This document shows positions 1 through 41,609 of a stretch of DNA of 42,736 nucleotides, piece by piece. The DNA is taken from positions 1 through 42,736 of IMG/VR virus record IMGVR_UViG_3300046787_000141. One strand, written 5' to 3'. The DNA comes from a virus. Every line of letters starts with the position of its first letter. Position 1 is the stretch's first letter. The notes beneath the pieces are model-generated. The model did no database searches and was not told the origin of the DNA. It saw nothing but the letters and a program-made list of their open reading frames with translations. A program made the translations under genes and the position numbers.

Positions 1-102
1 TATTACGACAACAGAACAGATTTCATCACAGGAACTATTCAAGCAGATTTGCCGAGTAATTATCGCAGAATCTTGGATGGATATAAATCAGTATTTATTT
101 AA
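1..102 (+). CDS. Head-tail connector, 3' end only (arm A)
   Basis: The window opens inside this gene; 33 codons and a TAA stop remain. The residues (YYDNRTDF near the start, LPSNYRRILDGYK near the end) match the C-terminus of the complete connector at 34189-34698, which ends with LPSNFRRILDGYK. It would be a gp6-like connector forming a ring below the portal. Its stop overlaps the next start by one base, as in the second copy. Confidence 0.85.
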   Translation, partial: YYDNRTDFITGTIQADLPSNYRRILDGYKSVFI

Positions 103-434
103 TGGATAATTCAAGCATTTTAAAACAACGTGTGATCGTTAAGCGATTGACAAAAACAGCCGATGGTTATGGTGGATGGACATCTACTAAATCAACGGTT
201 GGGACATATTGGGCAAGAGTGCAGGAAACATCAGGCGATATTGATGCAAAAAATGGGATCCGTTTACATGAAGTAAAAATTGAGATCATCATGCGCAAAC
301 CAACAGCTGATTTAATCCAAAATCAGGATGTATTGCAGGTTGAAGGGGATAGCGCAGAATACAGATTAAATAGCACGTTTCAAACGTTCGAAAACTTTTG
401 GGTAAAATCAACATTGACTAAGATCGGGCAATGA
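102..434 (+). CDS. Head closure / head-tail joining protein (arm A)
   Basis: This 110-residue protein has the pattern of the Phage_H_T_join family (SPP1 gp16 type): a start of the form SILKQRVIVKRL, then DGYGGWTS, a YWARV strand and a small beta-barrel-like remainder. Such proteins sit between connector and tail and close the filled head. A homologue lies at 34698-35039, roughly 85% identical in protein by eye, with changes mostly at third codon positions. It overlaps both neighbours by a few bases, indicating one late operon. Confidence 0.8.
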   Translation: MDNSSILKQRVIVKRLTKTADGYGGWTSTKSTVGTYWARVQETSGDIDAKNGIRLHEVKIEIIMRKPTADLIQNQDVLQVEGDSAEYRLNSTFQTFENFWVKSTLTKIGQ

Positions 435-871
435 ACATAAAAATAGACAAAACAGATTTGGCCATGTTGCGCAATAAGATCAAGCAATTGCAGGATCTGT
501 CCAAACAGGAATTGTCTAATGAGTTAGCCACAACAGCATTCAAAGCAACACAGCGAATGAAGTTAACGGCACCACATGATACAGGTAATTTGGTCCAATC
601 AATTAGAGCCGAACGTGTGAATCAAACAAATATTGAAATTAGAGCAGGCGCAAAATATGCACCTTACATGGAATTTGGAACGGGCCGTGGTGTCACACTA
701 AAATTTTTAAGAGATGCAGGATTTCCTGAATCGTATGCAGCACAATTTAAGGGCAAAGGTAAGGGCCGTGGTTTTGTTTATGCGCGACCATTCTTTTTTC
801 CTGCATTACGTGTTGAATTTGATCAATTAATCAAGCGAGTAGATCGCAAAATCAAGAACATAACAAAATAA
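431..871 (+). CDS. HK97 gp10-like tail-component protein (arm A)
   Basis: The 146-residue protein resembles the HK97-gp10 family: an N-terminal helix rich in Lys and Gln, the segment APHDTGNLVQSIRAE (the usual P.DTG.L..SI motif), then YAPYMEFGTGRG, a family hallmark. Members act at the head-tail junction during tail attachment. The homologue at 35029-35475 keeps these motifs (PKDTGKLVQQI, YAAYVEFGTGR) but is clearly diverged elsewhere. It starts inside the preceding stop (ATGA overlap) and its stop abuts the next ATG. Confidence 0.8.
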   Translation: MNIKIDKTDLAMLRNKIKQLQDLSKQELSNELATTAFKATQRMKLTAPHDTGNLVQSIRAERVNQTNIEIRAGAKYAPYMEFGTGRGVTLKFLRDAGFPESYAAQFKGKGKGRGFVYARPFFFPALRVEFDQLIKRVDRKIKNITK

Positions 872-1317
872 TGTTAGAGGCAATTCAATTTATTCGCAAG
901 GCGATCATAACGCGATTAACAGGTACGGTGATCCTGCACGGTTCGGCATTGCCTGTGTACAATCGTGTGCCATCATCCAGCACATTTCCATACATTCACG
1001 TGTATTCAGTCAGCACAAATGAGGCAGATTTCAATCAAATGTCATTCATTTCTGAAACCGTTACACGAATTGAAATAATTACACGATTTCAAGGTGATTC
1101 AGGTGGTGAGTTGGATGTTAACACAGCCATGTCACAGGTTTTAAATTTAATCCGCACAAGATCAGCTGGTTACTTTGACCTTTCTGCTGATGGATTCCAA
1201 GTTTTTACCTGCATAAATGAGGGCATTTCATATTTAACTGATGAGGACGAAGATTTTACATATTTTCGTGGTATTTTAGAGGTATCAAATAAGATTCAAC
1301 AGCTAAATGGAGATTAA
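871..1317 (+). CDS. Tail completion protein, DUF3168-like (arm A)
   Basis: This 148-residue protein fits the DUF3168/SPP1 gp17 type tail-terminator family by position and pattern: an N-terminal helix (AIQFIRKAIITRLTG), the PVYNRVPSSSTFPYI stretch, then strands around RIEIITRFQGDSGG and a helix with LNLIRTRS. These proteins cap the tail tube where it meets the head. The homologue is 35475-35924. The order closure, gp10-like, gp17-like is conserved in siphophages and supports the call more strongly than sequence alone. Confidence 0.72.
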   Translation: MLEAIQFIRKAIITRLTGTVILHGSALPVYNRVPSSSTFPYIHVYSVSTNEADFNQMSFISETVTRIEIITRFQGDSGGELDVNTAMSQVLNLIRTRSAGYFDLSADGFQVFTCINEGISYLTDEDEDFTYFRGILEVSNKIQQLNGD

Positions 1318-1576
1318 CGATATAGTGGTTCCAAGCGCGACAGCAGGCATTGCATCGCTATTTACTTGGATATTCGGCAGAAAAAAGGAAAACGCGGACA
1401 TTTCAAACGTCCAATTGGAGGCATCGCAAAAAGTGATCGATATGATCACGGCAATGAATGACCGATTGGAGGCAAAAGTAAATGATCTAAGTAAAAAAGT
1501 GGATGAATTAACTGAGGAGGTGATCCATTTGCGTACAGAAAACAGCAAATTAAAGTCAGGTAAACAGCCTAAATAG
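1307..1576 (+). CDS. Holin-like one-TM coiled-coil protein (arm A)
   Basis: The 89-residue protein has one N-terminal hydrophobic stretch (about residues 7-24, ending at FGRKK) followed by a long heptad-rich coiled coil (KVIDMITAMNDRLEAKVNDL onward) and a basic tail. It lies directly before the endolysin and the spanin, so a role in membrane permeabilisation, as a holin or holin regulator, is the natural inference. No family match is claimed. An i-spanin-like role is possible but less likely because the next gene but one looks like a complete u-spanin. It overlaps the previous gene by 11 bases. Confidence 0.5.
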   Translation: MEINDIVVPSATAGIASLFTWIFGRKKENADISNVQLEASQKVIDMITAMNDRLEAKVNDLSKKVDELTEEVIHLRTENSKLKSGKQPK

Positions 1577-2065
1577 GTGAAAGATCCAAAGACATTAGAT
1601 AGGATTAAATTGCTGCATCCAAAATTACGAGTGGAGGCAGACAAAATTTATACTGAAATCGCATTGGCATTAACAGGCCGTGCGATTTGTCGTTTTGCCT
1701 ATACATTGCGGACCTTTAAAGAGCAGGATGACCTGTATGCACAGGGAAGGTCCAAAGCTGGTCCGAAAGTTACTAACGCGAAAGGTGGGGATTCATACCA
1801 CAATTATGGTTTAGCTGTTGACATTGTTTTAATAAAAGATGGCAAAGTTGCACTATGGGACACTAAATCAGATTTTGATAGCGATGGCAAATCAGATTGG
1901 ATGGAATGCGTTGCAATCTTTAAAAAATACGGTTGGGATTGGGGCGGTGAGTGGAAGTTTGTTGATGCGCCACATTTTCAGAAATCATTTGGATATTCAA
2001 TTGACAAATTAAAGGAATTACATTCACGCAAATTAGTGGATGCATCAGGTTACGTTTCAATCTAA
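1577..2065 (+). CDS. Endolysin: M15 Zn peptidase with EF-hand-like loop (arm A)
   Basis: This 162-residue protein is a single-domain peptidoglycan peptidase of the M15/VanY type, like the L-alanyl-D-glutamate endolysin of phage T5. The zinc motif SYHNYGLAVD gives His75 and Asp82; the late motif DAPHF gives Asp130 and the third ligand His133. Residues 99-110 read as a textbook EF-hand loop, with Asp at loop positions 1, 3, 5 and 9, Gly at 6 and Glu at 12. T5 endolysin is activated by calcium through such a loop, so calcium-triggered lysis is inferred. The start is GTG right after the preceding stop. There is no signal peptide, so it needs a holin. Confidence 0.85.
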   Translation: MKDPKTLDRIKLLHPKLRVEADKIYTEIALALTGRAICRFAYTLRTFKEQDDLYAQGRSKAGPKVTNAKGGDSYHNYGLAVDIVLIKDGKVALWDTKSDFDSDGKSDWMECVAIFKKYGWDWGGEWKFVDAPHFQKSFGYSIDKLKELHSRKLVDASGYVSI

Positions 2066-2072
2066 CTAATAA

Positions 2073-2501
2073 ATGAAAAATCTAATCATCATTTTTATGG
2101 TCCTGTTTTTGGGATCATGCAAATCCACGCACATCCAGCAACAGGAAATCAAACACGATTCAATATTCGTGCAAAAAATCATTACCAAATATGATAAGCT
2201 GATCGACACAATCATGATCAATAATCCATGTGACTCAAATGGCATATTGTTGCCATTTAGAGAACGTATTAAAGCGCAGCAAGGTAATGTGTCCATTGAG
2301 TCAAAGAACGGCAAGCTGAGGGCCATTGTACATTACTATCCAATGGTAACATCAGATAATTATCGAGTGGATTACAAGTACATCACAAAAACGGTTTATA
2401 AAACAGAAACAAAAAAGCAATTTGATTGGACACCGTGGATTATTTTGGTAGGGATTGCATTGGTTTACTTATTGATTAATTTGAGGCCAAAATTTTTCTA
2501 A
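2073..2501 (+). CDS. Unimolecular spanin: lipoprotein with C-terminal TM (arm A)
   Basis: The 142-residue protein has a type II signal: a basic start, hydrophobic core and lipobox LGSC with Cys16 as the lipidated residue. A periplasmic region of about 95 residues follows, then a C-terminal membrane helix (about residues 121-137, starting WIILVGIALVYLL). An outer-membrane lipid anchor plus an inner-membrane helix in one protein is the u-spanin plan known from phage T1 gp11; it fuses the two membranes at the last lysis step. Position after the endolysin supports this. The homologue at 36681-37121 keeps the plan with much sequence change. Confidence 0.7.
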   Translation: MKNLIIIFMVLFLGSCKSTHIQQQEIKHDSIFVQKIITKYDKLIDTIMINNPCDSNGILLPFRERIKAQQGNVSIESKNGKLRAIVHYYPMVTSDNYRVDYKYITKTVYKTETKKQFDWTPWIILVGIALVYLLINLRPKFF

Positions 2502-2518
2502 ATTGCATAAAATTAAAG
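2500..2518 (+). promoter_or_regulatory. Conserved intergenic element before the giant fibre (arm A)
   Basis: The 25-base gap before the fibre gene contains AAATTGCATAAAATTAAA (2500-2517). The same 18 bases occur at 37120-37137 before the homologous fibre, although the adjacent coding DNA is diverged. This suggests a constrained promoter or translation signal. It is not a TAnnTTTG box, and its role is unknown. Confidence 0.4.
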
Positions 2519-2526
2519 CGATTTAA

Positions 2527-5500
2527 ATGGCAACATTAACGGGCAAATTAGTATCGGAAACCTACAAAGCATTGTTGAAAATGATCGACAATGACATCCT
2601 AACCGAAAGCGAAAAACAAATTTCGGACGGTTATGGTCAGGGAACAGGTATTTTCATTGATGATAATGGGTTTATTCGCGCATCAGTTTTTAAAGTTACA
2701 GGCGGAAGTTCATCACAATTTTTAAAAGCAGATGGATCGCTGGATAGTAATTCATATTTGACAGCTGCCTCCGCGGCAAATTTATTTTTGCCAATTGGAT
2801 CAACAACAACGGTGATCCCTGAGGGTACCAATCTATATTTTACAAATGCCCGTGTATTATCAACACCATTAACAGGATTTGTTGCTACCACAGGAACGGT
2901 TACAGCTGCCGATACGGTATTGACATCAATTGAAAAGATTTGGTGGAATATTGTTAACGGTGGTGGCGGTGGAGGTGGATATATTCCATATACAGGTGCA
3001 ACGCAATCCCTTAATATGGGTGAGTGGGGCATCACATCAGGTTTCTATGGATTTGATTTAACACCAACAGGTACACCGACAACGGTAGGTACAATGTCTT
3101 GGAATAGTCAAGATGGTACAGCTGATTTAAAAATGGGCGGCGGTAATGTTACTTTGCAGATTGGTCAAGAGGAATTGGTCAGAGTTGTAAATAAAACAGG
3201 GGCCAATTTATTAGAGGCAAATTATCAAGCAGTTAGGGTTTCAGGTGCGCAGGGAAATCGATTAAAAGTTGCATTAGCCAAAGCAGATAATGATGCAAAT
3301 TCAGCTGATACGATTGGATTGGTTACAGAAACAATAAATAATAATCAAGAGGGATTTGTAACAGCAGTTGGATTAGTTAGGAATATTGACACAACAGGTG
3401 ATTTGCAAACGGAAACGTGGGCAGATGGAGAAATGTTGTATTTAAGTTCAACAACAGCTGGGGCCATAACAAACATAAAACCAGAAGCACCAGAACACGG
3501 TGTGCGTTTAGGTTACGTTGTTCGTGCGCATAAAACACAGGGCCAAATTTATGTCAAGGTTGACAATGGCTATGAATTGGATGAGTTGCACAATGTGTTG
3601 ATTACCGATCCTATCACACAGGATATTTTAACCTATGATGAAGGATTGACAGGTGGTCTGTGGATTAACAGAAATATTTGGACTGCTATTGGCGCAACAG
3701 AGGTTGGTAAATCATTGCTTGCAATTTTGGATGCTGAGGACACCACACCTGTGACGACAAAGCCAAGGGCCATTAGGATAAACGTTGACAATACGGTCGA
3801 TGCGTTAGAAGTTGGCACACAGGGATATTTACCATTTTATGATGACACAGATTTTTACATTGATTCACCTGTATTTACAGATGGAACTGATGTAGTCATT
3901 GGAGGTGAAACACCAAATGGTACAAATAAATTGACCGTTATTGGTGGTATTTGGGGAGAAGAATTAGTATTAAATGACCAATTTTTATTGGCTACAAATC
4001 CAATTGGTGGTAATTATTCATTTAATATTTATGACGGCACAAGTTGGATTACTCAAATGGTCCTATCTAAAACCAATTTAGTATTCAATATTAGTGGGTA
4101 TGAAAAGATGCGATTAAACGCATCAGGTTATTTAGGTTTGGGAACTGATACACCAACAGCATTAATTCATGCTAAAAGTACGGTTGCATATCCTAAAATT
4201 ATCATTGACAATGCCAGCGCATCAGGTGGTGGTATGTTTAGCGCATACCAAAACGGCACAGAGATTGCCAATTTTGGAGTTTCAGGTGCATGGCTTATAG
4301 ATAATTCATCTGATGTTGCAATCGTTGCTACAAAGGCAGGACAAGGCATTCAATTTTTTACCAATGGGAGCAATTCTCAAAAGATGGCAATCAATGATGA
4401 AGGTAATGTTTACATTGGCCAATCACCAACATTTGTCGCAGGTGCTACACAGCTAATTGTAAGAGGTAAAACAGGTGCTGGATTCTTAGGTGTTCAGCAT
4501 TATGATATGTCAATCAAAGGTTCAATCAACACATTTAATAGTGTGTTTCAGGTTGGTACATCGACTTTTCATTCAGTAGCTGTAATCGTTGAGGATACAG
4601 AACGTGCAAGGTTTAATTCAGGTGGTCGTTTCTTATTAGGAACAACGACAGATAATACAACAGATATTTTTCAAGCTAACGGATCAATTATTGCATCAGC
4701 AATTAAGAAATCAGGCGGTACATCTGCACAATTTTTAAAAGCAGATGGTAGTGTCGATTCGACAGCATACGGCACAGGATCAGTTACATCAGTAAGCGCA
4801 ACGGTTCCAACAGGTTTTGCAATTTCAGGATCACCGATCACAACATCGGGAACATTAGCGATTACATTTGCATCAGGTTATGCATTGCCAACAACGATTA
4901 AGCAATCTAATTGGGATGATGCATATACGTGGGTGGCTGCATTCCCAACACAAACAGGAAACGCAGGAAAATATTTAACCACAGATGGTTCGACATTATC
5001 ATGGGGTACAATTGTAGCTGGTGTCAGTTCATTTAATACAAGAACAGGGGCAATTACATTATCAAGTACAGACGTAACAAACGCATTAGGATTCACACCT
5101 GTGACTAATGCACGTACCATTACAATTAACGGTACAACAAAAGATTTATCTACCAATATAACATTTACAACAGGCGGTGTCACATCGTTTAACACACGTG
5201 ATGGTGCCGTAACATTATCAAATACAGATGTAACGACAGCATTAGGATTTACACCTGTAACACAGGCGAGAACGTTGACAATTAACGGCCAAGGTTATGA
5301 CCTTTCTGCGGATAGAAGTTGGACCATTACACCAAGCAGCGGTATGCGTAATGTTACGCAATACATTGCAACGGCAGGACAAACTACATTCACAATTACA
5401 GGTGGTTACACGGCAGGATTAATTGATATTTTCTTGAATGGTGTTCGTATTCCTGAATCAGATTTCACAGCTACAAATGGCACAACGGTTGTATTTACAA

Positions 5501-7275
5501 CAGGTGTTAAAGTTGATGATGTGGTTACAGCTGTACTTTACACAGCAAGCGCAACATCAGGAATTACGGGTGCAGGTACAGCCAATTATTTGGCTAAGTG
5601 GTCAGGCACATCAGCCATTACAAATTCAATAATATTTGATGATGGTACTAATGTTGGAATTGGAACTGCATCACCAACATTTAAATTAGATATTGTTGGA
5701 ACTACAAGAATTGCAGGAAATGTTAGTGGAGGTTTTGTTGGATTAACTATTAAAAATAATAGTACAGGAACAAATGCATCACAGATTTCAATGCAAACAA
5801 ATACTCAAGATTGGTTTTTAAATGTTAGAACGGATAATCATTTTGGTATTTATAATAATACAGCAGCTACATCACCATTTGTTATTACAACAGGAGGAAA
5901 TGTTGGAATTGGTACAACATCTCCAAGTAGTATTTTACATTTAAATTCTGCATCATCTAATGGTACCGTAATTAGATTAACATCTACATCGACAAATGGC
6001 AAAACTTATGGAATAGGTTCAAACTTTGTTTCAGGAGCAGGTGAATTTGCAATTTATGATTATACAGCAGGCGCACAAAGATTTTTCATAAATTCATCAG
6101 GTAATATTGGTATTGGAACAACAACACCAAGTGAAAAACTTTCAGTGTTAGGAAATATTAATATTGCAACGGATGGTAATTCGTTTCAATGGGATGCAAG
6201 TGGTAATAAAGTAGCATTAAATGCTTATAGTGGAAATTTAGTATTTTATACTGGTACTGCTGGATATAATGAACGTATGCGAATTACATCATCTGGTTTT
6301 GTTGGTATAAATACATCAAATCCTGGTGTTTATTTAGATGTACAAGGTGGTACTATAAATGCATTTACTGCTGCTATAATGGCTAATTCTACATTTACAT
6401 TTGGAAGTACAAATGGCAAAAGATTAGTTGTTTTATCAAGTACACAAGGAGATAAAAATGGGCTGCAAATTGGTTATGATTCTACTGATGGGACAGGTAT
6501 AATTGCAGCATCTACTGAATCAGCTGGTGCAGGATTAGACTTTTATACATATAATGGCTCTTGGGCCAGTAGAGTTAGAATTGCAAAGTCAGGTTCATTA
6601 GGAATTGGAACTACTAACCCAAGAACATATTTACATAGTGCTACATCTGCAAGTTCAGGAGTTTTGCCATCATTAGGAGCAATTGGAGATGCAACAGCAT
6701 TATATTTAACAAATAGTAATAGTTTATATGGAATGTTGATGGGTTCATTGCCAAGTGGTAATTCATGGATTCAGGTTCAGAGAACAGATGGGAATGCAAC
6801 AGCATATAATTTAATATTACAGCCTAATGGTGGTTCAGTAAGTGTTACAGGTTCATTATCAAAAGGCTCAGGTTCATTTCGAATAGACCATCCTTTAAAA
6901 CCTAAAACCCATCAATTAGTTCATTCATTTATTGAGGGGCCACAGGCAGACTTAATTTATAGAGGTAAATTGAATCTTGTTAATGGAAAGGGAATGGCAA
7001 ATATTGACGATGTTTCATCAATGACAAAAGGTACTTTTGAGGCTCTTTGCAGAGATGTTCAATGTTTTACTACTAATGAAAATGGATGGGATTTAGTAAA
7101 GGGAAAAGTAATTGGTAATATTATTTACATAGAAAGTGTAAATCCAAATTCAACAGATGAGATTTCGTGGATGGTAATAGGAGAAAGAAAAGATAAACAT
7201 ATGTTTGATACGGAATGGACAGATGAATATGGTAAAGTAATAGTAGAGCCATTAAAAGAAATATTTAACGCATAG
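2527..7275 (+). CDS. Giant modular tail fibre (arm A)
   Basis: The 1582-residue protein is a tail fibre. The N-terminal part (start MATLTGKLV, ADGSL motifs) likely attaches to the tail. A run of six glycines near residue 147 forms a hinge before YIPYTGATQ. The middle has two tandem repeats around SSFNTRTGAITLSS and LGFTPVT (about 5017-5330). The C-terminal half is built of 70-90-residue beta cassettes, each introduced by a GNVGIGTTSP-like motif, typical of phage fibre shafts. The last ~120 residues (from HQLVHSFIEGPQ) are a separate domain; no S74 chaperone is present. Its homologue at 37149-41609 is 96 residues shorter because cassettes differ. It is probably receptor-binding or shaft-forming. 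Confidence 0.85.
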   Translation: MATLTGKLVSETYKALLKMIDNDILTESEKQISDGYGQGTGIFIDDNGFIRASVFKVTGGSSSQFLKADGSLDSNSYLTAASAANLFLPIGSTTTVIPEGTNLYFTNARVLSTPLTGFVATTGTVTAADTVLTSIEKIWWNIVNGGGGGGGYIPYTGATQSLNMGEWGITSGFYGFDLTPTGTPTTVGTMSWNSQDGTADLKMGGGNVTLQIGQEELVRVVNKTGANLLEANYQAVRVSGAQGNRLKVALAKADNDANSADTIGLVTETINNNQEGFVTAVGLVRNIDTTGDLQTETWADGEMLYLSSTTAGAITNIKPEAPEHGVRLGYVVRAHKTQGQIYVKVDNGYELDELHNVLITDPITQDILTYDEGLTGGLWINRNIWTAIGATEVGKSLLAILDAEDTTPVTTKPRAIRINVDNTVDALEVGTQGYLPFYDDTDFYIDSPVFTDGTDVVIGGETPNGTNKLTVIGGIWGEELVLNDQFLLATNPIGGNYSFNIYDGTSWITQMVLSKTNLVFNISGYEKMRLNASGYLGLGTDTPTALIHAKSTVAYPKIIIDNASASGGGMFSAYQNGTEIANFGVSGAWLIDNSSDVAIVATKAGQGIQFFTNGSNSQKMAINDEGNVYIGQSPTFVAGATQLIVRGKTGAGFLGVQHYDMSIKGSINTFNSVFQVGTSTFHSVAVIVEDTERARFNSGGRFLLGTTTDNTTDIFQANGSIIASAIKKSGGTSAQFLKADGSVDSTAYGTGSVTSVSATVPTGFAISGSPITTSGTLAITFASGYALPTTIKQSNWDDAYTWVAAFPTQTGNAGKYLTTDGSTLSWGTIVAGVSSFNTRTGAITLSSTDVTNALGFTPVTNARTITINGTTKDLSTNITFTTGGVTSFNTRDGAVTLSNTDVTTALGFTPVTQARTLTINGQGYDLSADRSWTITPSSGMRNVTQYIATAGQTTFTITGGYTAGLIDIFLNGVRIPESDFTATNGTTVVFTTGVKVDDVVTAVLYTASATSGITGAGTANYLAKWSGTSAITNSIIFDDGTNVGIGTASPTFKLDIVGTTRIAGNVSGGFVGLTIKNNSTGTNASQISMQTNTQDWFLNVRTDNHFGIYNNTAATSPFVITTGGNVGIGTTSPSSILHLNSASSNGTVIRLTSTSTNGKTYGIGSNFVSGAGEFAIYDYTAGAQRFFINSSGNIGIGTTTPSEKLSVLGNINIATDGNSFQWDASGNKVALNAYSGNLVFYTGTAGYNERMRITSSGFVGINTSNPGVYLDVQGGTINAFTAAIMANSTFTFGSTNGKRLVVLSSTQGDKNGLQIGYDSTDGTGIIAASTESAGAGLDFYTYNGSWASRVRIAKSGSLGIGTTNPRTYLHSATSASSGVLPSLGAIGDATALYLTNSNSLYGMLMGSLPSGNSWIQVQRTDGNATAYNLILQPNGGSVSVTGSLSKGSGSFRIDHPLKPKTHQLVHSFIEGPQADLIYRGKLNLVNGKGMANIDDVSSMTKGTFEALCRDVQCFTTNENGWDLVKGKVIGNIIYIESVNPNSTDEISWMVIGERKDKHMFDTEWTDEYGKVIVEPLKEIFNA

Positions 7276-7279
7276 AACA

Positions 7280-9337
7280 ATGTCAAAAAATCAAGATTTA
7301 GGTGAATTAATAAATGGGATTAAGGCATTAGCTACTAATCAGCTAAATGCACCTGCATATACATCAGCAACAGCATTTACAGGAACAATTGCTGGGTATC
7401 TTGGATTTGATACAAGCGGAAATATTTTAACAACAGGTGCATCAAGTCAATGGACTACATTAGGGTCAAATATTTATTATAATTCGGGAAATGTAGGAAT
7501 AGGAACATCAACACCTGATTCATTGCTTGTTGTTCAAGGTGGAACAATTAATGGTTTTGTATCATCAATTATAGCCAATTCAACATTTACATTTGGTAGT
7601 ACAAATGGTAAAAGATTATCTGTTTTTTCAAATACTCAGGGTGATAAAAATGGTATTCAAATTGGATTTGATTCTGTTGATGGTACAGGTATTATAGCTG
7701 GCTCAACAGAATCAGCTGGTGCAGGTATAGATTTTTATACTTACAATTCTGGTTCATGGGGTAACAGAATGAGAATTAGTAAAAATGGAAATATTGGAAT
7801 TGGTGTATATTCGCCTGCTGCATCATTACATTTAACAAATAGCACAACAGGTACACCAAGTATACCATCATTAGGTACTATTAATAATTACGTTGCACAA
7901 TATATTACTAATGGTGTTGGTGGTGGTTCTTATGGTTTAATGATTGGTACATTATTTTCAGGAAATGCATATTTTCAAGTACAGAGGTCTGATGGTACAG
8001 CAACAGCATACAACATATTATTACAGCCAAATGGAGGTAATGTTGGGATAGGTACATTAGGTCCATCATATAAATTAGATGTTGCAGGTGATGTAAATGT
8101 TACAGGTTCATTTAGGGTAAATGGCACACCTATTGGAACAGGTGGTGGTGGTGTATCTGGGTCAGGTACAACAAACTATTTATCTAAATGGTCAGCAGGA
8201 ACGGCCCTAACAAATAGCCAAATATTTGACAATGGTTCAAGCATTGGTTTACGCACAGCATCGCCATTCTACGTTATTGATTACCAATTAACAGGCAGTT
8301 TACGTTTAGGATATTTTATTGGTTCAATTGATGGCACAGACAACGCAAGTGGTATTGTCGCACACAATGGTAACGGTATTACACAAACGGTTCCATTTGG
8401 TTTCTCAGGTTCTAAATTTGCTTGGTATGTTGGTACAAATGAGGCAATGCGAATTGATACAAATCGCAATTTGTTAATTAACACAACAGGCGGAGTTTCA
8501 GGAGCAGGTGCATTACAGGTTAATGGCGATGTAAACGTCACAGGAACATTCAAGGTAAACGGTGTGCAATACAACACAGGCGGAGGCGGTGGTAATATTT
8601 CAGGTTCAGGTTCAACAAATTATGTTCCAAAGTTTACAGGTAGCACATCATTAGGTGATTCAGCATTATATGATGATGGTAATTTTTCAATGATTATTGG
8701 TGCCACAGGATTTTCAAGTGGCATCTTTATGAGAGCATCAAAATACTTAGGTGTTTACGGTGCATCATCATCAGGTATTGTTTTAAGAACAGCGGATGGT
8801 GACCCTAATGTAGCATCTGTAATTACACGTGAGCAGGGTGCTGGACAGGGTTTATCAATTTATGATGACAGACAAATATGGTTGGGCCAAAGTGGATTGT
8901 TAACGGTTGTAAATATATCAAACAACGCAGTCGGAATTAAAACACCAGCTGTTGGTACACCTTATGCATTGAATTTACCAAACGATTATTTGAATGCTGC
9001 CCGTGCTTATGCGTGGTACACATATTCAGATGAACGTATAAAACGTGACATTGAAGAAATCAGCTATGGTATCAATGATGTAATGAAAATGAAGCCTGTT
9101 AGATACAAGCATTATTCATCAGTATTTGAAAACAATTCATGGACATTAGAAAATAATTATACGACAGAGATTGGATTTGTTGCTCAGGATATGGATAAAA
9201 TTATCAGCGAAGTTGTAAATCGTGGAAGCGATAAGGAATTATGGTCATTGGATAAAAGCAAATTGATTCCTGTATTGGTTAAAGCCATTCAGGAATTGAA
9301 ATCAGAATTGGATATAATTAAATCAAATATTGCCTAA
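7280..9337 (+). CDS. Tail fibre with C-terminal S74 chaperone (arm A)
   Basis: The 685-residue fibre begins with a short adapter, followed by beta cassettes with GNVGIGTSTP-type motifs and two glycine-rich hinges. Its first ~190 residues after the adapter resemble the last cassettes of the preceding fibre, so the two genes share a duplicated block. The C-terminus carries the peptidase S74 intramolecular chaperone: YSDERIKRDI provides the Ser and Lys of the self-cleavage site, followed by MKMKPVRYKH, EIGFVAQDM and a terminal helix. S74 domains trimerise the fibre and then cut themselves off. It starts four bases after the previous stop; the homologue at 41614 runs off the window. Confidence 0.87.
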   Translation: MSKNQDLGELINGIKALATNQLNAPAYTSATAFTGTIAGYLGFDTSGNILTTGASSQWTTLGSNIYYNSGNVGIGTSTPDSLLVVQGGTINGFVSSIIANSTFTFGSTNGKRLSVFSNTQGDKNGIQIGFDSVDGTGIIAGSTESAGAGIDFYTYNSGSWGNRMRISKNGNIGIGVYSPAASLHLTNSTTGTPSIPSLGTINNYVAQYITNGVGGGSYGLMIGTLFSGNAYFQVQRSDGTATAYNILLQPNGGNVGIGTLGPSYKLDVAGDVNVTGSFRVNGTPIGTGGGGVSGSGTTNYLSKWSAGTALTNSQIFDNGSSIGLRTASPFYVIDYQLTGSLRLGYFIGSIDGTDNASGIVAHNGNGITQTVPFGFSGSKFAWYVGTNEAMRIDTNRNLLINTTGGVSGAGALQVNGDVNVTGTFKVNGVQYNTGGGGGNISGSGSTNYVPKFTGSTSLGDSALYDDGNFSMIIGATGFSSGIFMRASKYLGVYGASSSGIVLRTADGDPNVASVITREQGAGQGLSIYDDRQIWLGQSGLLTVVNISNNAVGIKTPAVGTPYALNLPNDYLNAARAYAWYTYSDERIKRDIEEISYGINDVMKMKPVRYKHYSSVFENNSWTLENNYTTEIGFVAQDMDKIISEVVNRGSDKELWSLDKSKLIPVLVKAIQELKSELDIIKSNIA

Positions 9338-18157: not shown

Positions 18158-18742
18158 ATGGCACAACAAAACACATTAGCAACAATTCAGGCCAAGGTCA
18201 AAGCACCAAAAGGTCAGTTCAATTCATTCGGTAAGTACAAGTACAGGTCAGCCGAGGACATCCTTGAATCAGTTAAATTAATTATCAATCCGTTAGGTTT
18301 TTCAATTGTCCTCTCAGACACGATAATTAACGTAGGCGATAGATTCTATATCAAAGCAACTGCAACGCTCACAGATGGCAAGGAAACGTACTCAGCAGAC
18401 GGGTATGCTCGTGAAGATGAAAGCAAAAAAGGTATGGATGGTTCACAGGTCACTGGGGCATCAAGCTCGTATGCTAGAAAGTATGCGCTTAACGGTCTGT
18501 TTGCATTAGATGATACAAAAGATGCAGATGCTACAAATACCCACGGAAAAGAAGTTCAAGCATATCAACCGAAGCAAGAAGTAGCAACCGAGCCATCAGT
18601 TTTATCGGCTTGGCAAGTAGCAGTTAAGAAATGTAACACCGGTGCTGAATTAATGTCCTTGTATAGTTCAAACAAAGAGTTAATTGATTCAGATATCAAT
18701 ATCAAGTCGTTATTCACAACTCGTAAATTAGAAATTGACTAA
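18158..18742 (+). CDS. erf: ERF-family single-strand annealing protein
   Basis: The 194-residue protein matches the ERF family: FGKYKYRSAEDILESVK in the N-terminal part, YIKATATLTDGKE, and the conserved GASSSYARKYALNGLFALDD segment. ERF proteins form rings that anneal complementary DNA strands for phage recombination and end joining, as in P22. The C-terminus (QPKQEVATEPSVLSAWQ) is a linker plus a small helical part. It is followed directly by an exonuclease and an SSB-like gene, a standard recombination cassette. The first codons (ACAACAAAAC, 18163-18172) are complementary to the candidate small RNA. Confidence 0.88.
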   Translation: MAQQNTLATIQAKVKAPKGQFNSFGKYKYRSAEDILESVKLIINPLGFSIVLSDTIINVGDRFYIKATATLTDGKETYSADGYAREDESKKGMDGSQVTGASSSYARKYALNGLFALDDTKDADATNTHGKEVQAYQPKQEVATEPSVLSAWQVAVKKCNTGAELMSLYSSNKELIDSDINIKSLFTTRKLEID

Positions 18743-19446
18743 TGGATAGCACTTGGATGGATTCTCGTAAAGGTAAATTTACGGCATCAGCAATGTACAA
18801 GTTATTTACTCAGCCAAAATCGGTAAAAGACCGTGAGGCTGGGTATTTATCAGAGACAGCTAAAAGCTACATTGAAGAAGTAGCAATTGAGGAATTGACA
18901 GGCTATCGTAAAGACTTTGGCACATCAGCTACCGAACACGGAAACAAATACGAAGAAGAAGCATTTGAAATGTTTAAGCAGGCAACCGGTTTAAACTTTG
19001 ATTTTACTTCAAAAACGTTTTATCCTTTCGGTGGTAATAGCGGAGCATCACCCGATGGTGTTTTGTATGAAGATTTAAGCATTACGGCAGTCGTTGATAT
19101 TAAATGCCCATACTCACCGCTATCATTCTACGAACAAAAGGAAATGCTGATGAATTGTGCAGGAAATAAAACACAAGGAGTGCCACCTGCATATTTCTAT
19201 CAATTGCAAACACAAATGATGGCTACCGGCGCAAGAATTGCATATTTGGCTCGTTATTTAGCAAATGAAATTGAGGATACTAAGACAGGCGCAATATTAG
19301 AGTTCAATTTGCCAATATCAGCAAGATTGTACTGGGCAGAAGTTACAGCAGACCAAGATATCCAAGACGAGATTTTAATGAAGCTACGTCAGGCAGAAAT
19401 TTACAAACAACAAATAATTCAAAACTTTTTAAAACAAATCAATTAA
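18742..19446 (+). CDS. YqaJ/lambda-type recombination exonuclease
   Basis: The 234-residue protein fits the lambda exonuclease/YqaJ family: WMDSRKGKFTAS at the start, EHGNKYEEEAFEMF (Glu71), GASPDGVL (Asp105) and VVDIKCPYS (Asp119, Lys121), then a Gln-rich YYQLQTQM-like region. It would degrade one strand of double-stranded DNA 5' to 3' so that the ERF annealase can pair the exposed strand. The usual Glu of the ExK motif appears as Asp (DIK). It overlaps the annealase stop by one base. Confidence 0.87.
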   Translation: MDSTWMDSRKGKFTASAMYKLFTQPKSVKDREAGYLSETAKSYIEEVAIEELTGYRKDFGTSATEHGNKYEEEAFEMFKQATGLNFDFTSKTFYPFGGNSGASPDGVLYEDLSITAVVDIKCPYSPLSFYEQKEMLMNCAGNKTQGVPPAYFYQLQTQMMATGARIAYLARYLANEIEDTKTGAILEFNLPISARLYWAEVTADQDIQDEILMKLRQAEIYKQQIIQNFLKQIN

Positions 19447-26340: not shown

Positions 26341-26447
26341 AATCTGAAGAAAGATTGATTTTTGAAGCTATTTTAATCGGTATGGTTGAAATAGCTTTTA
26401 TCATTTATATGACAATTAAAATTTTAAAACAAAGAAATAACCAATGA
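26337..26447 (+). CDS. Tiny membrane protein, 36 aa
   Basis: Starting at an ATG overlapping the previous stop, it encodes a charged start (MKSEERLIFE), one membrane helix (AILIGMVEIAFIIYMTIKIL) and a basic end (KQRNNQ). The stop overlaps the ParB-like gene start. No family is recognised. Confidence 0.5.
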   Translation: MKSEERLIFEAILIGMVEIAFIIYMTIKILKQRNNQ

Positions 26448-27016
26448 ATGCTGAATTAATTAAAATCGGTGAAATTAAATCTAATCCTAACAACCCAAGG
26501 ATTATCAAGGATGATAAATTTAAAAAACTTGTAAATTCAATTAAGGAGTTTCCAAAGATGCTTGAATTGCGTCCAATAGTTGTTAACGATGATATGGTTG
26601 TGCTTGGTGGCAATATGCGATTAAAAGCATGCAAAGAAGCAGGATTAAAAGAAGTGCCGGTCATCAAAGCATCTGATTTAACTGATGATGAGCAGAAGCA
26701 ATTTATTATTAAAGACAATGTAGGATTTGGGGAGTGGGATTGGGATATGCTTGCAAACGAGTGGGAAATTGAAGATTTAACCGAGTGGGGATTGGACCTA
26801 TGGAATAAGGGACTTGACGTAAACGAAATGAACGAAAGTGACATTGATTTACAGCAAGAGTTTGACCCAATTGGTTTATCAGCAGGATTGCAACGTGTTG
26901 TATTTATTTTTGATGGGCCGGAAGAAGCTGAAAGCTGGTTGAATCAACATCCCGAGTTACCACTTAAAAAAATGAATAACGCATGGCAAATCGACCTATC
27001 TACCCAATCTATATAA
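26444..27016 (+). CDS. ParB N-terminal-domain-like protein
   Basis: The 190-residue protein opens with the ParB/Srx fold pattern: IKIGEIKSNPNNPRIIKDDK, FKKLVNSIKEFP, RPIVVNDDMVVLGGNMRLKA, VIKASDLTDDEQKQFIIKDN. GGNMRLKA takes the place of the GERR-type loop that binds CTP in chromosomal ParB. The C-terminal part (LSAGLQRVVFIFDGPEEAES) is a short extra domain. In phages such proteins are often linked to DNA modification enzymes or terminases. Here it overlaps a glycosyltransferase-like gene by 34 bases and precedes the terminase, so a role in modification or packaging is inferred. No partition system is present. Confidence 0.8.
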   Translation: MNAELIKIGEIKSNPNNPRIIKDDKFKKLVNSIKEFPKMLELRPIVVNDDMVVLGGNMRLKACKEAGLKEVPVIKASDLTDDEQKQFIIKDNVGFGEWDWDMLANEWEIEDLTEWGLDLWNKGLDVNEMNESDIDLQQEFDPIGLSAGLQRVVFIFDGPEEAESWLNQHPELPLKKMNNAWQIDLSTQSI

Positions 27017-27750
27017 TCTCAAAAGGCAGGTATGAAAAAACTTTATCTGCTGACATTTTTGAGAAGGCAGGATTGGATTATTATGTAGCTGTTGAGCCAC
27101 AAGAATATGACCTATATGTTAAGAAACTTGGCGAAAAGAGAATATTAAAATTGCCATTTAAAAATTTGGGATTAGGTAGCTATCCGGCAAGGAATTTCTG
27201 TTGGGAGCATAGTAAAAGTCTTGGATGCAAATATCATTGGTTGTTCGATGATAATATTCAATATTTTTCTAAGTGGATTAACGGAAAGCGTAGAAGAATT
27301 GACACGATAGGTGATGCACTAATTTATGTTGAGCAATTTGTTATAAAAAATAAAATAACAATAGGTGGGTTTGAAGAGCCTAATTTTGTTGTTAAACCAC
27401 CTAAAAAAGCATTTAAAATTAATTGCCACGTTTACTCGGCAATGCTAATTAAAAATGATATACCTTTCAGGTGGCGACTTAAATACAATGAAGATGTAGA
27501 TTTGTGTTTGCAAGTTTTACATAACGGAGGCAGTACAGCAAGCTGTATTTATTATATGGCCGATAAAGTAAGTACGGCAGCTAAAATGAAAGGTGGCAAT
27601 CAGACTGAACTTTACAAAGGGAATGCACCGGAAAAAAATCTATTAAAAGCAAAGATGCTCGAAGCTGTTTGGCCACAATATGCTAAAACAGTCATTAGAT
27701 TTAATCGCCATCATCATTTAGTAGATTGGAAAGTATTTAAAAGAAAGTAA
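26983..27750 (+). CDS. TET-associated-glycosyltransferase-like protein (GREB1-related)
   Basis: The 255-residue protein has the pattern of the TET-associated glycosyltransferase (TAGT) / GREB1-related family: PIYIISKGRYEKTLSADIFE, AVEPQEYDLYVKKL, GSYPARNFCWEHSKSLG, then WLFDDNIQYF with the acidic Asp89-Asp90 metal/nucleotide-sugar motif, and YNEDVDLCLQ (Glu170, Asp171) as likely catalytic acidics. Members are predicted to add sugars to hydroxymethylated DNA bases in phages. No TET/JBP dioxygenase or hydroxymethylase gene was found, so the base to be modified would have to come from another source or the target differs. It lies between the ParB-like and terminase genes. Confidence 0.7.
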   Translation: MANRPIYPIYIISKGRYEKTLSADIFEKAGLDYYVAVEPQEYDLYVKKLGEKRILKLPFKNLGLGSYPARNFCWEHSKSLGCKYHWLFDDNIQYFSKWINGKRRRIDTIGDALIYVEQFVIKNKITIGGFEEPNFVVKPPKKAFKINCHVYSAMLIKNDIPFRWRLKYNEDVDLCLQVLHNGGSTASCIYYMADKVSTAAKMKGGNQTELYKGNAPEKNLLKAKMLEAVWPQYAKTVIRFNRHHHLVDWKVFKRK

Positions 27751-34698: not shown

Positions 34699-35039
34699 TG
34701 AACAACGACGCTTCAATTTTAAAACAACGTGTGATTGTTAAGCGATTAACAAAAACAGCTGATGGTTATGGCGGTTGGACGTCTACAAAATCAACAGTAG
34801 GTACTTACTGGTGTAGTGTAAGAGAAACATCAGGAGAAATAGATGCTAAAAATGGCATTCGGTTGCACGAGGTAAAAATTGATTTAGTTATGCGCAAGCC
34901 AACGTCAGATTTAATTCAAACTGAGGACATATTGCAAGTCGAAGGTGCTTCTGCTGAATACAGATTAAATAGTTTGTTTCAGACCTTTGAAAACTTTTGG
35001 GTAAAAGCAACACTTACCAAGATAGGCAATGAAAACTGA
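34698..35039 (+). CDS. Head closure / head-tail joining protein (arm B)
   Basis: This 113-residue homologue of 102-434 shares ILKQRVIVKRLTKTADGYGG exactly but differs at YWCSV against YWARV and has a longer C-terminus (KIGNEN). It has the same role in closing the head. Differences are mainly synonymous, as between related strains. It overlaps the next gene by 11 bases. Confidence 0.82.
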   Translation: MNNDASILKQRVIVKRLTKTADGYGGWTSTKSTVGTYWCSVRETSGEIDAKNGIRLHEVKIDLVMRKPTSDLIQTEDILQVEGASAEYRLNSLFQTFENFWVKATLTKIGNEN

Positions 35040-36673: not shown

Positions 36674-36680
36674 CTAACCA

Positions 36681-37148: not shown

Positions 37149-40100
37149 ATGGCTACATTAACCGGAAAATTAGTTGCGGAAACATATAAAGCGTTATTAA
37201 AATTAATTGATAATGACGTAATAACCGGTTCAGAAAAGCAAATTTCGGATGGTTTAGGTGGTTCGACAGGAGTGTTTATTGACACAAATGGTTTCTTGCG
37301 TGCATCTAAATTTATTGTTACAGGTGGAAATTCAGGTCAATTCTTAAAAGGTGATGGTTCACTTGATGGAACAGGTTATTTACCTATTGGCTCAACAACA
37401 TCAGTAATTCCGGAGGGAAGCAATTTATATTTTACAAATCCACGAGTTTTATCAACACAGTTAACAGGATTTGTTTCGACAGAGGGAACGGTCACAGCTG
37501 CTGATACAGTACTAAGTGCATTTAACAAAATTTGGTGGAACATCGAAAATGGTGGAGGCGGAGGTGGTGGCTATGTGCCATATACAGGTGCAACACAAAA
37601 TTTAAACTTAGGAACATACGGCCTTATTTCTGATTACATTCAATTTAATTTAGCACCAACATCTATTCCAACAACGGCAGGTACAATGTCTTGGAATGCT
37701 GCGGATGGAACAGCCGACCTAAAAATGGGCGGAGCAAATGTTACATTGCAGGTAGGTCAAGAGGAATTGGTTAGAGTGGTAAACAAAACAGGGGCCAATT
37801 TATTAGAAGCAAATTATCAAGCTGTGCGTATATCAGGTGCGCAAGGTAATCGATTAAAAGTTGATTTAGCCAAAGCGGATAATGATGCAAATTCTGCCGA
37901 TACGATTGGTTTGGTTACAGAAACAATTAATAATAATCAAGAGGGATTTGTTACAGCTGTTGGATTAGTTCGGAATATTGATACGACAGGTGACTTGCAA
38001 ACGGAAACGTGGGCAGATGGTGAAATGTTGTACTTAAGTTCAACAACAGCTGGGGCCATTACTAATATAAAACCCGAAGCACCTGAACACGGTGTTCGTT
38101 TAGGTTACGTTGTTCGTGCGCACAAAACACAAGGCCAAATTTATGTCAAGGTTGATAATGGCTATGAGTTGGATGAATTGCACAATGTGCTAATTACTGA
38201 CCCATTAGATGAGGATGTTTTATTTTATGATGAAGCTAATTTGCTTTGGATTAATAAAAATATTTATTCCGCAATTAATGCCACAGACGTAGGTAAATCA
38301 TTGCTTGGTATTTTAAATGCTGAGGACACTACACCTGTAACGACAAAGCCAAGGGGCATTCGTATTAATGTTGACAATACGGTCGATGCGTTAGAGGTTG
38401 GCACACAGGGTTATTTGCCATTTTACGATGACACAGATTTTTACATTGATTCACCAGCTTGGACAGATGGAACACAGGTTGTAATTGGTGATGATGCAGC
38501 ATTTGCAACAGGCAATAAATTATCAGTAGTTGGTAATTTAGCAATTGCAAATACATTTGGTTACTATATTGGAGCCAACAGAATCCTATTTAGAAACAAT
38601 ACAACAGGGGAATTTACAATTGGCACAACGGTTGCTAATGATTTCACAACGTTTTATGCAAACAGCATTGAACGTATGAGATTAAGCGCATCAGGATATT
38701 TAGGAATTGGTTTGACAAGTCCAACACAGCCATTACACGTTAAAGGTGTTTTGGCATATCCTAAAATTATCATTGACAACAACAGCGCATCAGGTGGAGG
38801 TATGTTTAGCGCATACCAAAACGGCACAGAAACAGCCATGTTTGGAGTTTCAGGTGCATGGCTTATAAACAATTCATCTGATGCTGCAATCGTTGCTACA
38901 CGGGCAGGACAAGGCATCCAATTTTACACTAACGGCAGCAATTCAGAAAAGATGGGAATCAATTCTGATGGTAATGTTTTTGTGGGCCAAACACCAACGT
39001 ATGTCGCAGGTGCCACACAGCTAATTGTAAGAGGCAAAACAGGTGCTGGATTCTTAGGTGTGAATCATTATGATATGTCAATCAAAGGTTCAATCAACAC
39101 ATTTAATAGTGTGTTTCAGGTTGGCACATCGACATTTCATTCGGTTGCATTTATTGTTGAGGACATTGAACGTGCAAGAATCAATTCAGGTGGCCGTATG
39201 TTATTGGGAACAACGACAGATAATACGGTCGATAAATTACAGATTGATGGTTCATTAATTGCCACAGCCATTAAGAAATCAGGCGGTACATCTGCACAAT
39301 TTTTAAAAGCTGATGGTAGTGTGGATACGACAGCATACGGCACAGGTTCAGTTACATCAGTAAGCGCAACGGTTCCAACAGGGTTTGCCATTTCAGGTTC
39401 ACCAATTACAACATCGGGAACATTAGCGATTACTTTTGCATCAGGTTACAGCCTGCCAACAACGATTAAGCAATCCAATTGGGATGATGCATATACCTTT
39501 GTGGCAGCATTTCCAACGCAGACAGGCAACGCAGGTAAATATTTAACCACAGATGGTTCATCATTATCATGGGGTAGCATTGTTTCAGGTGTCAGTTCAT
39601 TTAATACAAGAACAGGTGATGTTACATTGGTAAGTACAGACGTAATCAATGCGTTGAATTACACACCTGTGACCAATGCAAGAACGTTAACAATCAACGG
39701 CACAACATACGATTTATCAGCAGATAGAAGCTGGACAATTGCAAGTGGTGTGTCATCGTTTAATACACGTACAGGCGCAGTTACATTAACAAGTTCAGAT
39801 GTAACAACAGCATTAGGTTTTACACCTGTAACGCAGGCAAGAACATTGACAATTAATGGTCAAGGTTATGACCTTTCGACTGACCGTGCTTGGACTATTA
39901 CACCAAGCAGTGGAATGCGTAATGTTACGCAATATATTGCAACGGCAGGACAAACTACATTTACAATCACAGGTGGTTACACAGCAGGATTAATTGATAT
40001 TTTCTTGAATGGTGTACGTATACCTGAATCAGATTTCACAGCTACAAATGGGACTACGGTTGTATTTACAACAGGGGTAAAAGTTAATGATGTAGTTACA

Positions 40101-41609
40101 GCTGTACTTTACACAGCCAGCGCAACATCAGGAATTACAGGTGCAGGAACAGCCAATTATTTGGCTAAATGGTCAGGCACATCAGCCATTACAAATTCAT
40201 TGATTTATGACAATGGTACAAATGTTGGAATTGGAACTGCATCACCAAGTAGTATTTTACATTTAAATTCTGCATCATCTAATGGTACCGTAATTAGATT
40301 AACATCTACATCTACAAATGGCAAAACTTATGGAATAGGTTCAAACTTTGTTTCAGGAGCAGGTGAATTCGCAATTTATGATTATACAGCAGGCGCACAA
40401 AGATTTTTCATAAATTCATCAGGTAATATTGGTATTGGAACAACAACACCTTTTTCAGTTAATGGAACAAATCTTGAAATAACATCTACAACAGCTTTTC
40501 CATCAAGATTAATATTAACAAATTCATCAGCATCTGGTCGCCAATATTTCTTTCAAAATCAGGGTGATGGTAACTTAATTATATATGATAATACAGCATC
40601 TACTGAACGTTTTAGAATTACATCATCTGGTTTTGTTGGTATAAATACATCAAATCCTGGTGTTTATTTAGATGTACAGGGTGGGACTATAAATGCATTT
40701 ACTGCTGCTATAATGGCTAATTCTACATTTACATTTGGAAGTACAAATGGTAAAAGATTAGTTGTTTTATCAAGTACACAAGGAGATAAAAATGGACTTC
40801 AATTAGGTTATGATTCTACTGATGGGACAGGTATAATTGCAGCATCTACTGAATCAGCTGGTGCAGGATTAGATTTTTATACATATAATGGCTCTTGGGC
40901 CAGTAGAGTTAGAATTGCAAAGTCAGGTTCATTAGGAATTGGAACTACTAACCCAAGAACATATTTACATAGTGCTACATCTGCAAGTTCAGGAGTTTTG
41001 CCATCATTAGGAGCAATTGGAGATGCAACAGCATTATATTTAACAAATAGTAATAGTTTATATGGAATGTTGATGGGTTCATTGCCAAGTGGTAATTCAT
41101 GGATTCAGGTTCAGAGAACAGATGGGAATGCAACAGCATATAATTTAATATTACAGCCTAATGGTGGTTCAGTAAGTGTTACAGGTTCATTATCAAAAGG
41201 CTCAGGTTCATTTCGAATAGACCATCCTTTAAAACCTAAAACCCATCAATTAGTTCATTCATTTATTGAGGGGCCACAGGCAGACTTAATTTATAGAGGT
41301 AAATTGAATCTTGTTAATGGAAAGGGAATGGCAAATATTGACGATGTTTCATCAATGACAAAAGGTACTTTTGAGGCTCTTTGCAGAGATGTTCAATGTT
41401 TTACTACTAATGAAAATGGATGGGATTTAGTAAAGGGAAAAGTAATTGGTAATATTATTTACATAGAAAGTGTAAATCCAAATTCAACAGATGAGATTTC
41501 GTGGATGGTAATAGGAGAAAGAAAAGATAAACATATGTTTGATACGGAATGGACAGATGAATATGGTAAAGTAATAGTAGAGCCATTAAAAGAAATATTT
41601 AACGCATAG
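37149..41609 (+). CDS. Giant modular tail fibre (arm B)
   Basis: This 1486-residue homologue of 2527-7275 has N-terminal and middle regions with moderate synonymous and some amino-acid divergence. Compared with arm A, one ~80-residue cassette between GIGTASP and GIGTTSP is missing and another (after GIGTTTP) is replaced by an unrelated one (FSVNGTNLEITSTTAFPSRL). From about 40620 to the end it is nearly identical to arm A. The hexaglycine hinge, the SSFNTRTG repeats and the C-terminal FIEGPQ domain are all kept. It is the receptor-binding fibre of the second variant. Confidence 0.85.
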   Translation: MATLTGKLVAETYKALLKLIDNDVITGSEKQISDGLGGSTGVFIDTNGFLRASKFIVTGGNSGQFLKGDGSLDGTGYLPIGSTTSVIPEGSNLYFTNPRVLSTQLTGFVSTEGTVTAADTVLSAFNKIWWNIENGGGGGGGYVPYTGATQNLNLGTYGLISDYIQFNLAPTSIPTTAGTMSWNAADGTADLKMGGANVTLQVGQEELVRVVNKTGANLLEANYQAVRISGAQGNRLKVDLAKADNDANSADTIGLVTETINNNQEGFVTAVGLVRNIDTTGDLQTETWADGEMLYLSSTTAGAITNIKPEAPEHGVRLGYVVRAHKTQGQIYVKVDNGYELDELHNVLITDPLDEDVLFYDEANLLWINKNIYSAINATDVGKSLLGILNAEDTTPVTTKPRGIRINVDNTVDALEVGTQGYLPFYDDTDFYIDSPAWTDGTQVVIGDDAAFATGNKLSVVGNLAIANTFGYYIGANRILFRNNTTGEFTIGTTVANDFTTFYANSIERMRLSASGYLGIGLTSPTQPLHVKGVLAYPKIIIDNNSASGGGMFSAYQNGTETAMFGVSGAWLINNSSDAAIVATRAGQGIQFYTNGSNSEKMGINSDGNVFVGQTPTYVAGATQLIVRGKTGAGFLGVNHYDMSIKGSINTFNSVFQVGTSTFHSVAFIVEDIERARINSGGRMLLGTTTDNTVDKLQIDGSLIATAIKKSGGTSAQFLKADGSVDTTAYGTGSVTSVSATVPTGFAISGSPITTSGTLAITFASGYSLPTTIKQSNWDDAYTFVAAFPTQTGNAGKYLTTDGSSLSWGSIVSGVSSFNTRTGDVTLVSTDVINALNYTPVTNARTLTINGTTYDLSADRSWTIASGVSSFNTRTGAVTLTSSDVTTALGFTPVTQARTLTINGQGYDLSTDRAWTITPSSGMRNVTQYIATAGQTTFTITGGYTAGLIDIFLNGVRIPESDFTATNGTTVVFTTGVKVNDVVTAVLYTASATSGITGAGTANYLAKWSGTSAITNSLIYDNGTNVGIGTASPSSILHLNSASSNGTVIRLTSTSTNGKTYGIGSNFVSGAGEFAIYDYTAGAQRFFINSSGNIGIGTTTPFSVNGTNLEITSTTAFPSRLILTNSSASGRQYFFQNQGDGNLIIYDNTASTERFRITSSGFVGINTSNPGVYLDVQGGTINAFTAAIMANSTFTFGSTNGKRLVVLSSTQGDKNGLQLGYDSTDGTGIIAASTESAGAGLDFYTYNGSWASRVRIAKSGSLGIGTTNPRTYLHSATSASSGVLPSLGAIGDATALYLTNSNSLYGMLMGSLPSGNSWIQVQRTDGNATAYNLILQPNGGSVSVTGSLSKGSGSFRIDHPLKPKTHQLVHSFIEGPQADLIYRGKLNLVNGKGMANIDDVSSMTKGTFEALCRDVQCFTTNENGWDLVKGKVIGNIIYIESVNPNSTDEISWMVIGERKDKHMFDTEWTDEYGKVIVEPLKEIFNA

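What the first reader, a model, noticed from the sequence alone, without database searches (positions are those of the whole stretch)
5640..6290. Tail-fibre cassette deletion and swap exactly at GIGT repeat motifs
Seen: between the arms, arm A has an extra cassette from GIGTASP (about 5660) to GIGTTSP (about 5915), absent in arm B, where GIGTASP joins directly to SSILHLNSAS. After the next GIGTTTP motif the two arms carry unrelated cassettes (6126-6280 versus about 40447-40615), rejoining at FRITSSGF / MRITSSGF. Inference: the repeated GN(V/I)GIGT..P codons act as recombination joints that let shaft or receptor modules be exchanged.
Basis: partly seen in the sequence, partly recalled or inferred. 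Interest (0 to 1): 0.6.

Follow-up and report, generated by a model that had tools for sequence, protein, structure and literature searches.

The report
Phage fibre cassettes swapped at loops
A repeated loop in these virus tail fibres marks where whole blocks of the fibre are added, lost or exchanged between related viruses, which may help viruses keep changing what they stick to.

Summary
Arm B lacks exactly 249 nt (83 codons) that arm A carries between GIGTASP and GIGTTSP. After GIGTTTP the arms carry unrelated cassettes and rejoin at (M/F)RITSSGF, the lead-in of the next motif. A third relative, L228, combines A's extra cassette with B's alternative cassette, so the two blocks assort independently.

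Of 46 homology breakpoints inside the motif zone of multi-motif fibres (26 pairs, 37 loci), 34 lie at a motif, against 12.6 expected; without the window arms, 32 of 41 against 11.7. A random-DNA control shows no method bias. Isolate phages show it too: S-TIM61 switches parent inside the motif.

The motif is the 'capping loop' of trimeric beta-helix fibres solved in Bdellovibrio MAT proteins. Motif codons are homogenised within genes, not between genes, although other repeated 6-mers show some excess too. The phage encodes ERF and YqaJ. Joint and module are well supported; whether DNA homology or protein selection fixes the joint is open. New variant of known motif-mediated fibre shuffling.

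The parts
2527..7275 (+). tail fibre gene, arm A (1582 aa), five motif copies
   Evidence: ORF, translation, PHROG tail fiber hits 2e-29 and 3.1e-17; motif copies read
5647..5676 (+). motif copy 1 of arm A (TNVGIGTASP), left joint of the cassette missing in B
5677..5925 (+). 249-nt extra cassette of arm A including motif copy 2; absent in arm B, present and 98-100% identical in L228
5896..5925 (+). motif copy 2 (GNVGIGTTSP), right joint of the missing cassette
5926..6099 (+). cassette common to A, B and L228 (97.4% A to B over 5898-6128)
6100..6129 (+). motif copy 3 (GNIGIGTTTP), left joint of the swapped cassette
6129..6282 (+). swapped cassette, arm A version (154 nt between last shared base and rejoin)
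6295..6324 (+). motif copy 4 (GFVGINTSNP); the arms rejoin at 6283 in its RITSSG lead-in
6592..6621 (+). motif copy 5 (GSLGIGTTNP)
7280..9337 (+). second fibre gene (685 aa) with three motif copies and a C-terminal Peptidase_S74 chaperone
   Evidence: PF13884 1.1e-8; motifs
18158..18742 (+). ERF single-strand annealing protein, proposed agent of the exchanges
   Evidence: PF04404 1.9e-37, phrog_155 8e-43
18742..19446 (+). YqaJ-type exonuclease next to ERF
   Evidence: PF09588 2.1e-14, phrog_149 1.3e-22
37149..41609 (+). tail fibre gene, arm B (1486 aa)
40218..40247 (+). fused motif of arm B (left half like copy 1, right edge like copy 2)
40422..40451 (+). motif copy 3 of arm B
40451..40616 (+). 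swapped cassette, arm B version (166 nt), shared at 96-100% with L228
41614..42735 (+). second fibre gene of arm B, cut by the record end

Best explanation
The GIGT motif encodes the capping loop that closes each beta-helix segment of a trimeric fibre. Consecutive loops bound cassettes, mostly of about 60-140 residues, each carrying one outward face. Recombination at the loop codons (shown for the joints; the enzyme is inferred to be the phage's own ERF annealing protein with its YqaJ exonuclease) adds, removes or replaces whole cassettes in frame. The result is a new outer surface on an intact fibre. Shown: joints at motifs, independent assortment of two cassettes, motif identity with MAT capping loops. 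Inferred: the agent, the trimer, and the effect on what the phage binds.
For: Exact joints in the window. Three haplotypes A(+,a), B(-,b), L228(+,b). 34 of 46 between-sequence breakpoints at the motif against 12.6 expected; 23 of 31 without the richest pair; query side 31 of 46 against a shift null of 6.9, sd 2.5; 32 of 41 against 11.7 without the window arms. No bias on random DNA: 77 of 400 against 79.7. Isolate cyanophage S-TIM61 changes from S-TIM66/S-TIM5-like to S-TIM54-like bases within codon 3 of a motif (leading Gly = codon 0). Capping-loop identity: profile hits to Bdellovibrio MAT chains (8ond 2.7e-24, 8ojn 3.5e-17), consensus in PMC10769870, model match to 8onb_B Z 8.2, rmsd 2.3 over 73 residues. 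Motif codons homogenised within ORFs: 0.550 against 0.363 expected in 80 ORFs; between ORFs 0.345 against 0.335. ERF and YqaJ genes adjacent.
Against: 12 of 46 events are not at the motif. Joins between paralogous stretches of one sequence show no enrichment (3 of 17 against 3.8). In isolates only 5 in-zone events remain, 3 at the motif (expected 1.2), and S-TIM5 against S-TIM66/61 rejoin 304-325 nt from a motif. Repeated 6-mers elsewhere in the same ORFs also share codons beyond expectation (0.175 per ORF, 0.133 pooled, against 0.206 for the motif). S-TIM66 and S-TIM61 show no motif homogenisation. ERF-type recombination was measured on 800 bp substrates (PMC3945230), not on 30 nt.
Confidence: 0.6

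Rival explanations
1. Protein selection alone sets the joints: recombination happens anywhere, but only chimeras that join at a capping loop fold and survive, so the motif is a structural boundary and not a DNA joint.
For: The motif is a real structural boundary in MAT fibres. Breakpoint clustering alone cannot separate the two readings. Repeated 6-mers elsewhere also show codon excess.
Against: Motif codons are homogenised within genes and not between genes; the excess is 0.11-0.34 at codons 0-8 and is near zero at conserved flanking residues such as codons 12, 13 and 15 (K, L and V of KL.V). The window and S-TIM61 joints can be placed within a few bases inside the motif.
Confidence: 0.33
2. 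Assembly artefact: the joints are chimeras made by a metagenome assembler at repeats.
For: The window is one virus record whose ends are homologous but diverged, which looks like two strains assembled into one contig.
Against: The two joint copies in A share at most 14 nt exactly. L228, from another record, carries each cassette in another combination. Complete isolate genomes show motif joints.
Confidence: 0.03
3. A dedicated site-specific system (invertase, mutator retroelement or transposon) swaps the cassettes.
For: None found; cassette swaps in tail fibres by invertases are known elsewhere (recalled).
Against: No inverted repeats of 60 nt or more in the window. Cassettes are joined directly in frame with no left-over element. 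No site-specific recombinase family among the 20 window ORFs searched (the other ORFs were not searched).
Confidence: 0.03

Closest known systems
Mosaic adhesive trimer (MAT) fibres of Bdellovibrio bacteriovorus (Caulton et al. 2024, PMC10769870)
   Same: Same capping-loop motif bounding a beta-helix segment, loops about 96 residues apart (R656-H669 and F752-H765 in Bd3182); profile and fold match; some members end in S74.
   Different: There 'mosaic' refers to different tips on a conserved base; the sections read (11 and 16, plus passages) propose tip swapping and do not describe recombination at the capping loops. Host is a predatory bacterium, not a phage.
[quoted passage not shown] 1998; only the title seen, in the reference list of PMC3797505; content recalled)
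   Same: Short conserved motifs in a fibre act as joints for exchanging receptor-binding parts.
   Different: Different motifs (His boxes and Gly-rich motifs, recalled) and a different fold; no sequence relation tested here.
Relaxed homologous recombination by Rad52-like phage recombinases including Erf of phage D3 (De Paepe et al. 2014, PMC3945230, passages)
   Same: ERF plus exonuclease pair that recombines diverged DNA.
   Different: Shown on long diverged substrates, not on loops of about 30 nt.
Ongoing domain shuffling in phage receptor-binding proteins (PMC10684548, passages)
   Same: Recent exchange of fibre fragments between related phages.
   Different: Fragment or domain level; the words linker and breakpoint do not occur in that text and no joint motif was seen in the passages shown.

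Membership tests
MAT-type capping-loop beta-helix fibre | capping-loop consensus (V-G-G/N-pi-X-X-P-X-X-X-L as printed) | tested here: met
   A1 profile of the repeats hits MAT chains at 2.7e-24 to 2.4e-6 and aligns motif to motif; G, G-I-G and P invariant in 60 cassettes, which were chosen by the motif. The consensus as printed is one residue shorter between V and P than the aligned MAT loops.
MAT-type capping-loop beta-helix fibre | beta-helix segment between successive capping loops | tested here: met
   Cassette model pLDDT 84, Foldseek 8ond 3.6e-6, 8onb_B Z 8.2, rmsd 2.3, 73 residues aligned
MAT-type capping-loop beta-helix fibre | intertwined trimer | not testable with these tools
   only monomer prediction offered
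MAT-type capping-loop beta-helix fibre | conserved N-terminal beta domain of about 130 aa after a signal peptide | not tested
   bacterial surface feature; the phage fibre N terminus was not compared, so membership of the bacterial MAT family itself is not claimed
S74 (intramolecular chaperone) fibre | C-terminal Peptidase_S74 domain in fibre 1 | tested here: not met
   No Pfam S74 hit in fibre 1, A or B. The neighbouring fibre 2 (P0003) has it (1.1e-8), so only fibre 2 is filed as S74.
Motif-mediated fibre module exchange (T-even type) | breakpoints at repeated conserved motifs | tested here: met
Motif-mediated fibre module exchange (T-even type) | exchange changes receptor specificity | not testable with these tools
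   needs host-range or binding assays
ERF single-strand annealing recombinase | ERF domain | tested here: met
   PF04404 1.9e-37, 129 bits against a cut-off of 25

The most novel reading that the evidence does not exclude
The capping-loop codons are a two-layer element: at protein level they end one beta-helix face and start the next, and at DNA level they are kept alike within each gene by repeated recombination, so the fibre gene is a self-maintaining array of interchangeable cassettes (up to 21 strict motif copies in one ORF) used by many different aquatic phages.
Probability: 0.3. Interest if true: 0.75.

Novelty: new variant of a known kind. Interest (0 to 1): 0.58.

Why it matters
It gives a simple, testable rule for where fibre genes of many uncultured phages recombine, ties that rule to a solved structure, and suggests how phages rebuild their contact surface cassette by cassette. 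The codon homogenisation makes it possible to ask whether a protein loop can also be a DNA recombination site.

Tried and rejected
Literature for the motif itself: 'GIGTTSP', 'GNVGIGT' and 'tail fiber'+'GIGT' returned 0 papers. Wider searches gave related mosaicism papers but none whose listing names this motif as a joint; 'S-TIM61' gave 0 papers. No claim of priority goes beyond these searches.

The first breakpoint pass on 212 sequences (28 events) was replaced by the larger one on 368. From 386 loci, 3 that are pieces of the window and 17 same-contig duplicates were dropped and the two arms added. Searches kept only the best 80 of 137, 251, 83 and 417 confirmed loci. Of 97 between-sequence events, 51 lay outside the motif zone or in ORFs with fewer than two motifs and were not counted. 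The motif pattern misses B's fused copy (TNVGIGTASP), so the L228/B event counts as far.

Parental triples: the automatic search over 1,138 motifs found one (L239, crossover -7 to +17 of the motif, 3 incompatible sites); the window and S-TIM61 joints were read by hand.

Tandem prophages as the origin of the arms: not favoured (no integrase among the 20 ORFs searched), not excluded.

Megablast of window 1-24000 against phages: no match. Genome contigs: one weak relative. A last viral scan with an L234 segment gave 5 loci, 2 of them already-known contigs, not used.

Full report
What is there. The window is one whole virus record, G000, 42,736 bases. Its ends are homologous: bases 1 to about 8,400 (arm A) align with 34,600-42,736 (arm B) at an offset of about 34.6 kb, mostly 55-95% identical per 100 nt, but 100% over windows starting at A 6564 to 7564. 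A related record is 34,500 bases long (L014), so I infer a genome of about 34.6 kb with the record running past one turn into a second strain. Tail terminator, tape measure, terminase, portal, head maturation protease, major head protein and endolysin families are present.

B lacks 249 nt between motif copies 1 and 2 of A; the swap after copy 3 spans 154 nt in A and 166 nt in B; the arms rejoin at the RITSSG lead-in of copy 4. L228 (another record, IMGVR_UViG_3300020045_006122) is 98-100% identical to A across the extra cassette and 96-100% identical to B across the swapped one. Three of the four possible combinations thus exist.

Do breakpoints cluster at the motif? 368 sequences were compared all against all by blastn; abrupt ends of homology inside motif-bearing ORFs were collected and those sharing a position merged: 298 raw ends, 159 events, 97 between sequences and 62 within. 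In the motif zone of ORFs with at least two motifs, 46 between-sequence events remain; 34 lie within -12 to +36 nt of a motif start in at least one partner, 12.6 expected. On the query side alone it is 31 of 46 against 6.9 by random shifts (5,000 shifts, maximum 18); one event per pair gives 16.7 of 26 against 3.8. Without the pair L234/L239 it is 23 of 31 against 8.0; without the window arms 32 of 41 against 11.7. Random DNA with planted repeats showed no pull of end-points (77 of 400, 79.7 expected). Against: 12 of 46 are elsewhere, though two of these lie within 15 nt upstream and one within 25 nt upstream of a motif start; and within-sequence joins are not enriched, 3 of 17 against 3.8.

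Isolates. Fibre regions of 21 named phage records were fetched. Five in-zone events remain, 3 at the motif, 1.2 expected. In S-TIM61 a tract of about 240 nt is S-TIM54-like in a background otherwise nearly identical to S-TIM66 and S-TIM5; the switch lies between GTT of codon 2 and the third base of codon 3 of the motif. One isolate rejoin (S-TIM5 with S-TIM66 or S-TIM61) is 304-325 nt from a motif.

What the motif is. The repeat profile hits solved Bdellovibrio MAT fibres. The paper (outline and abstract, passages, sections 11 and 16 read) describes capping loops of identical structure at R656-H669 and F752-H765 that limit a surface cleft. A cassette model from 60 aligned cassettes has mean pLDDT 84 and matches that beta-helix. 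Spacing of 671 successive motifs: median 88 residues, quartiles 74 and 138. The cassette is therefore best read as one beta-helix face between two loops.

DNA or protein? In 80 ORFs with at least four motifs (596 motifs, 2,677 copy pairs with dissimilar flanks) synonymous codons agree at 0.550 against 0.363 expected from the ORF's own usage; between ORFs of different loci 0.345 against 0.335 (1,495 ORF pairs, sampled). The excess is concentrated in codons 0-8. With ORFs sharing 100-nt stretches merged it is 0.553 against 0.362 in 68 ORFs. With a stricter flank filter the motif excess is 0.206 (66 ORFs); repeated 3-, 4-, 5- and 6-mers elsewhere give 0.021, 0.056, 0.103 and 0.175. So the motif is homogenised, but long repeated peptides in these genes tend that way too. 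Of 6 isolate ORFs, S-CRES1, S-CRES2 and S-TIM54 show a clear excess, S-TIM5 a small one, S-TIM66 and S-TIM61 none.

Agent. ERF and YqaJ genes sit side by side at 18158-19446. Passages of PMC3945230 report that Erf/Exo of phage D3 recombines 78% identical substrates; extension to loops of 30 nt is my inference.

Verdict. Observation confirmed; interpretation mostly right and now anchored in a known structure; the DNA-joint mechanism is likely but unproven.

Noticed in passing
window 1-8400 and 34600-42736: The record's two ends are diverged homologous arms, as if two strains of one 34.6 kb phage had been assembled into a single contig of about 1.23 turns.
   Followed up: partly
window 6564-7664 and 40898-41998: About 1.1 kb of fibre 1 end and fibre 2 start is 100% identical between arms that are otherwise mostly 55-95% identical, which suggests very recent transfer.
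   Followed up: partly
window 6252-6551, 6722-6846 and 7444-7743, 7926-8050: Cassettes at the end of fibre 1 are 66-67% identical to cassettes at the start of fibre 2, so cassettes appear to have been copied between the two neighbouring genes.
   Followed up: no
L234 and L239: Very long fibre ORFs with 20 and 19 motif copies, plus second ORFs with 17 and 10; they share only scattered blocks at about 78-95% identity, many bounded by motifs.
   Followed up: partly
window 26444-27750: A ParB/methyltransferase-like protein next to a TET-associated glycosyltransferase (PF20691), hinting at modified phage DNA bases.
   Followed up: no
window 4990-5340: A second repeated unit (SFNTRTGAVTL...LGFTPVTNARTLTING) lies upstream of the GIGT cassettes in both arms.
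   Followed up: no
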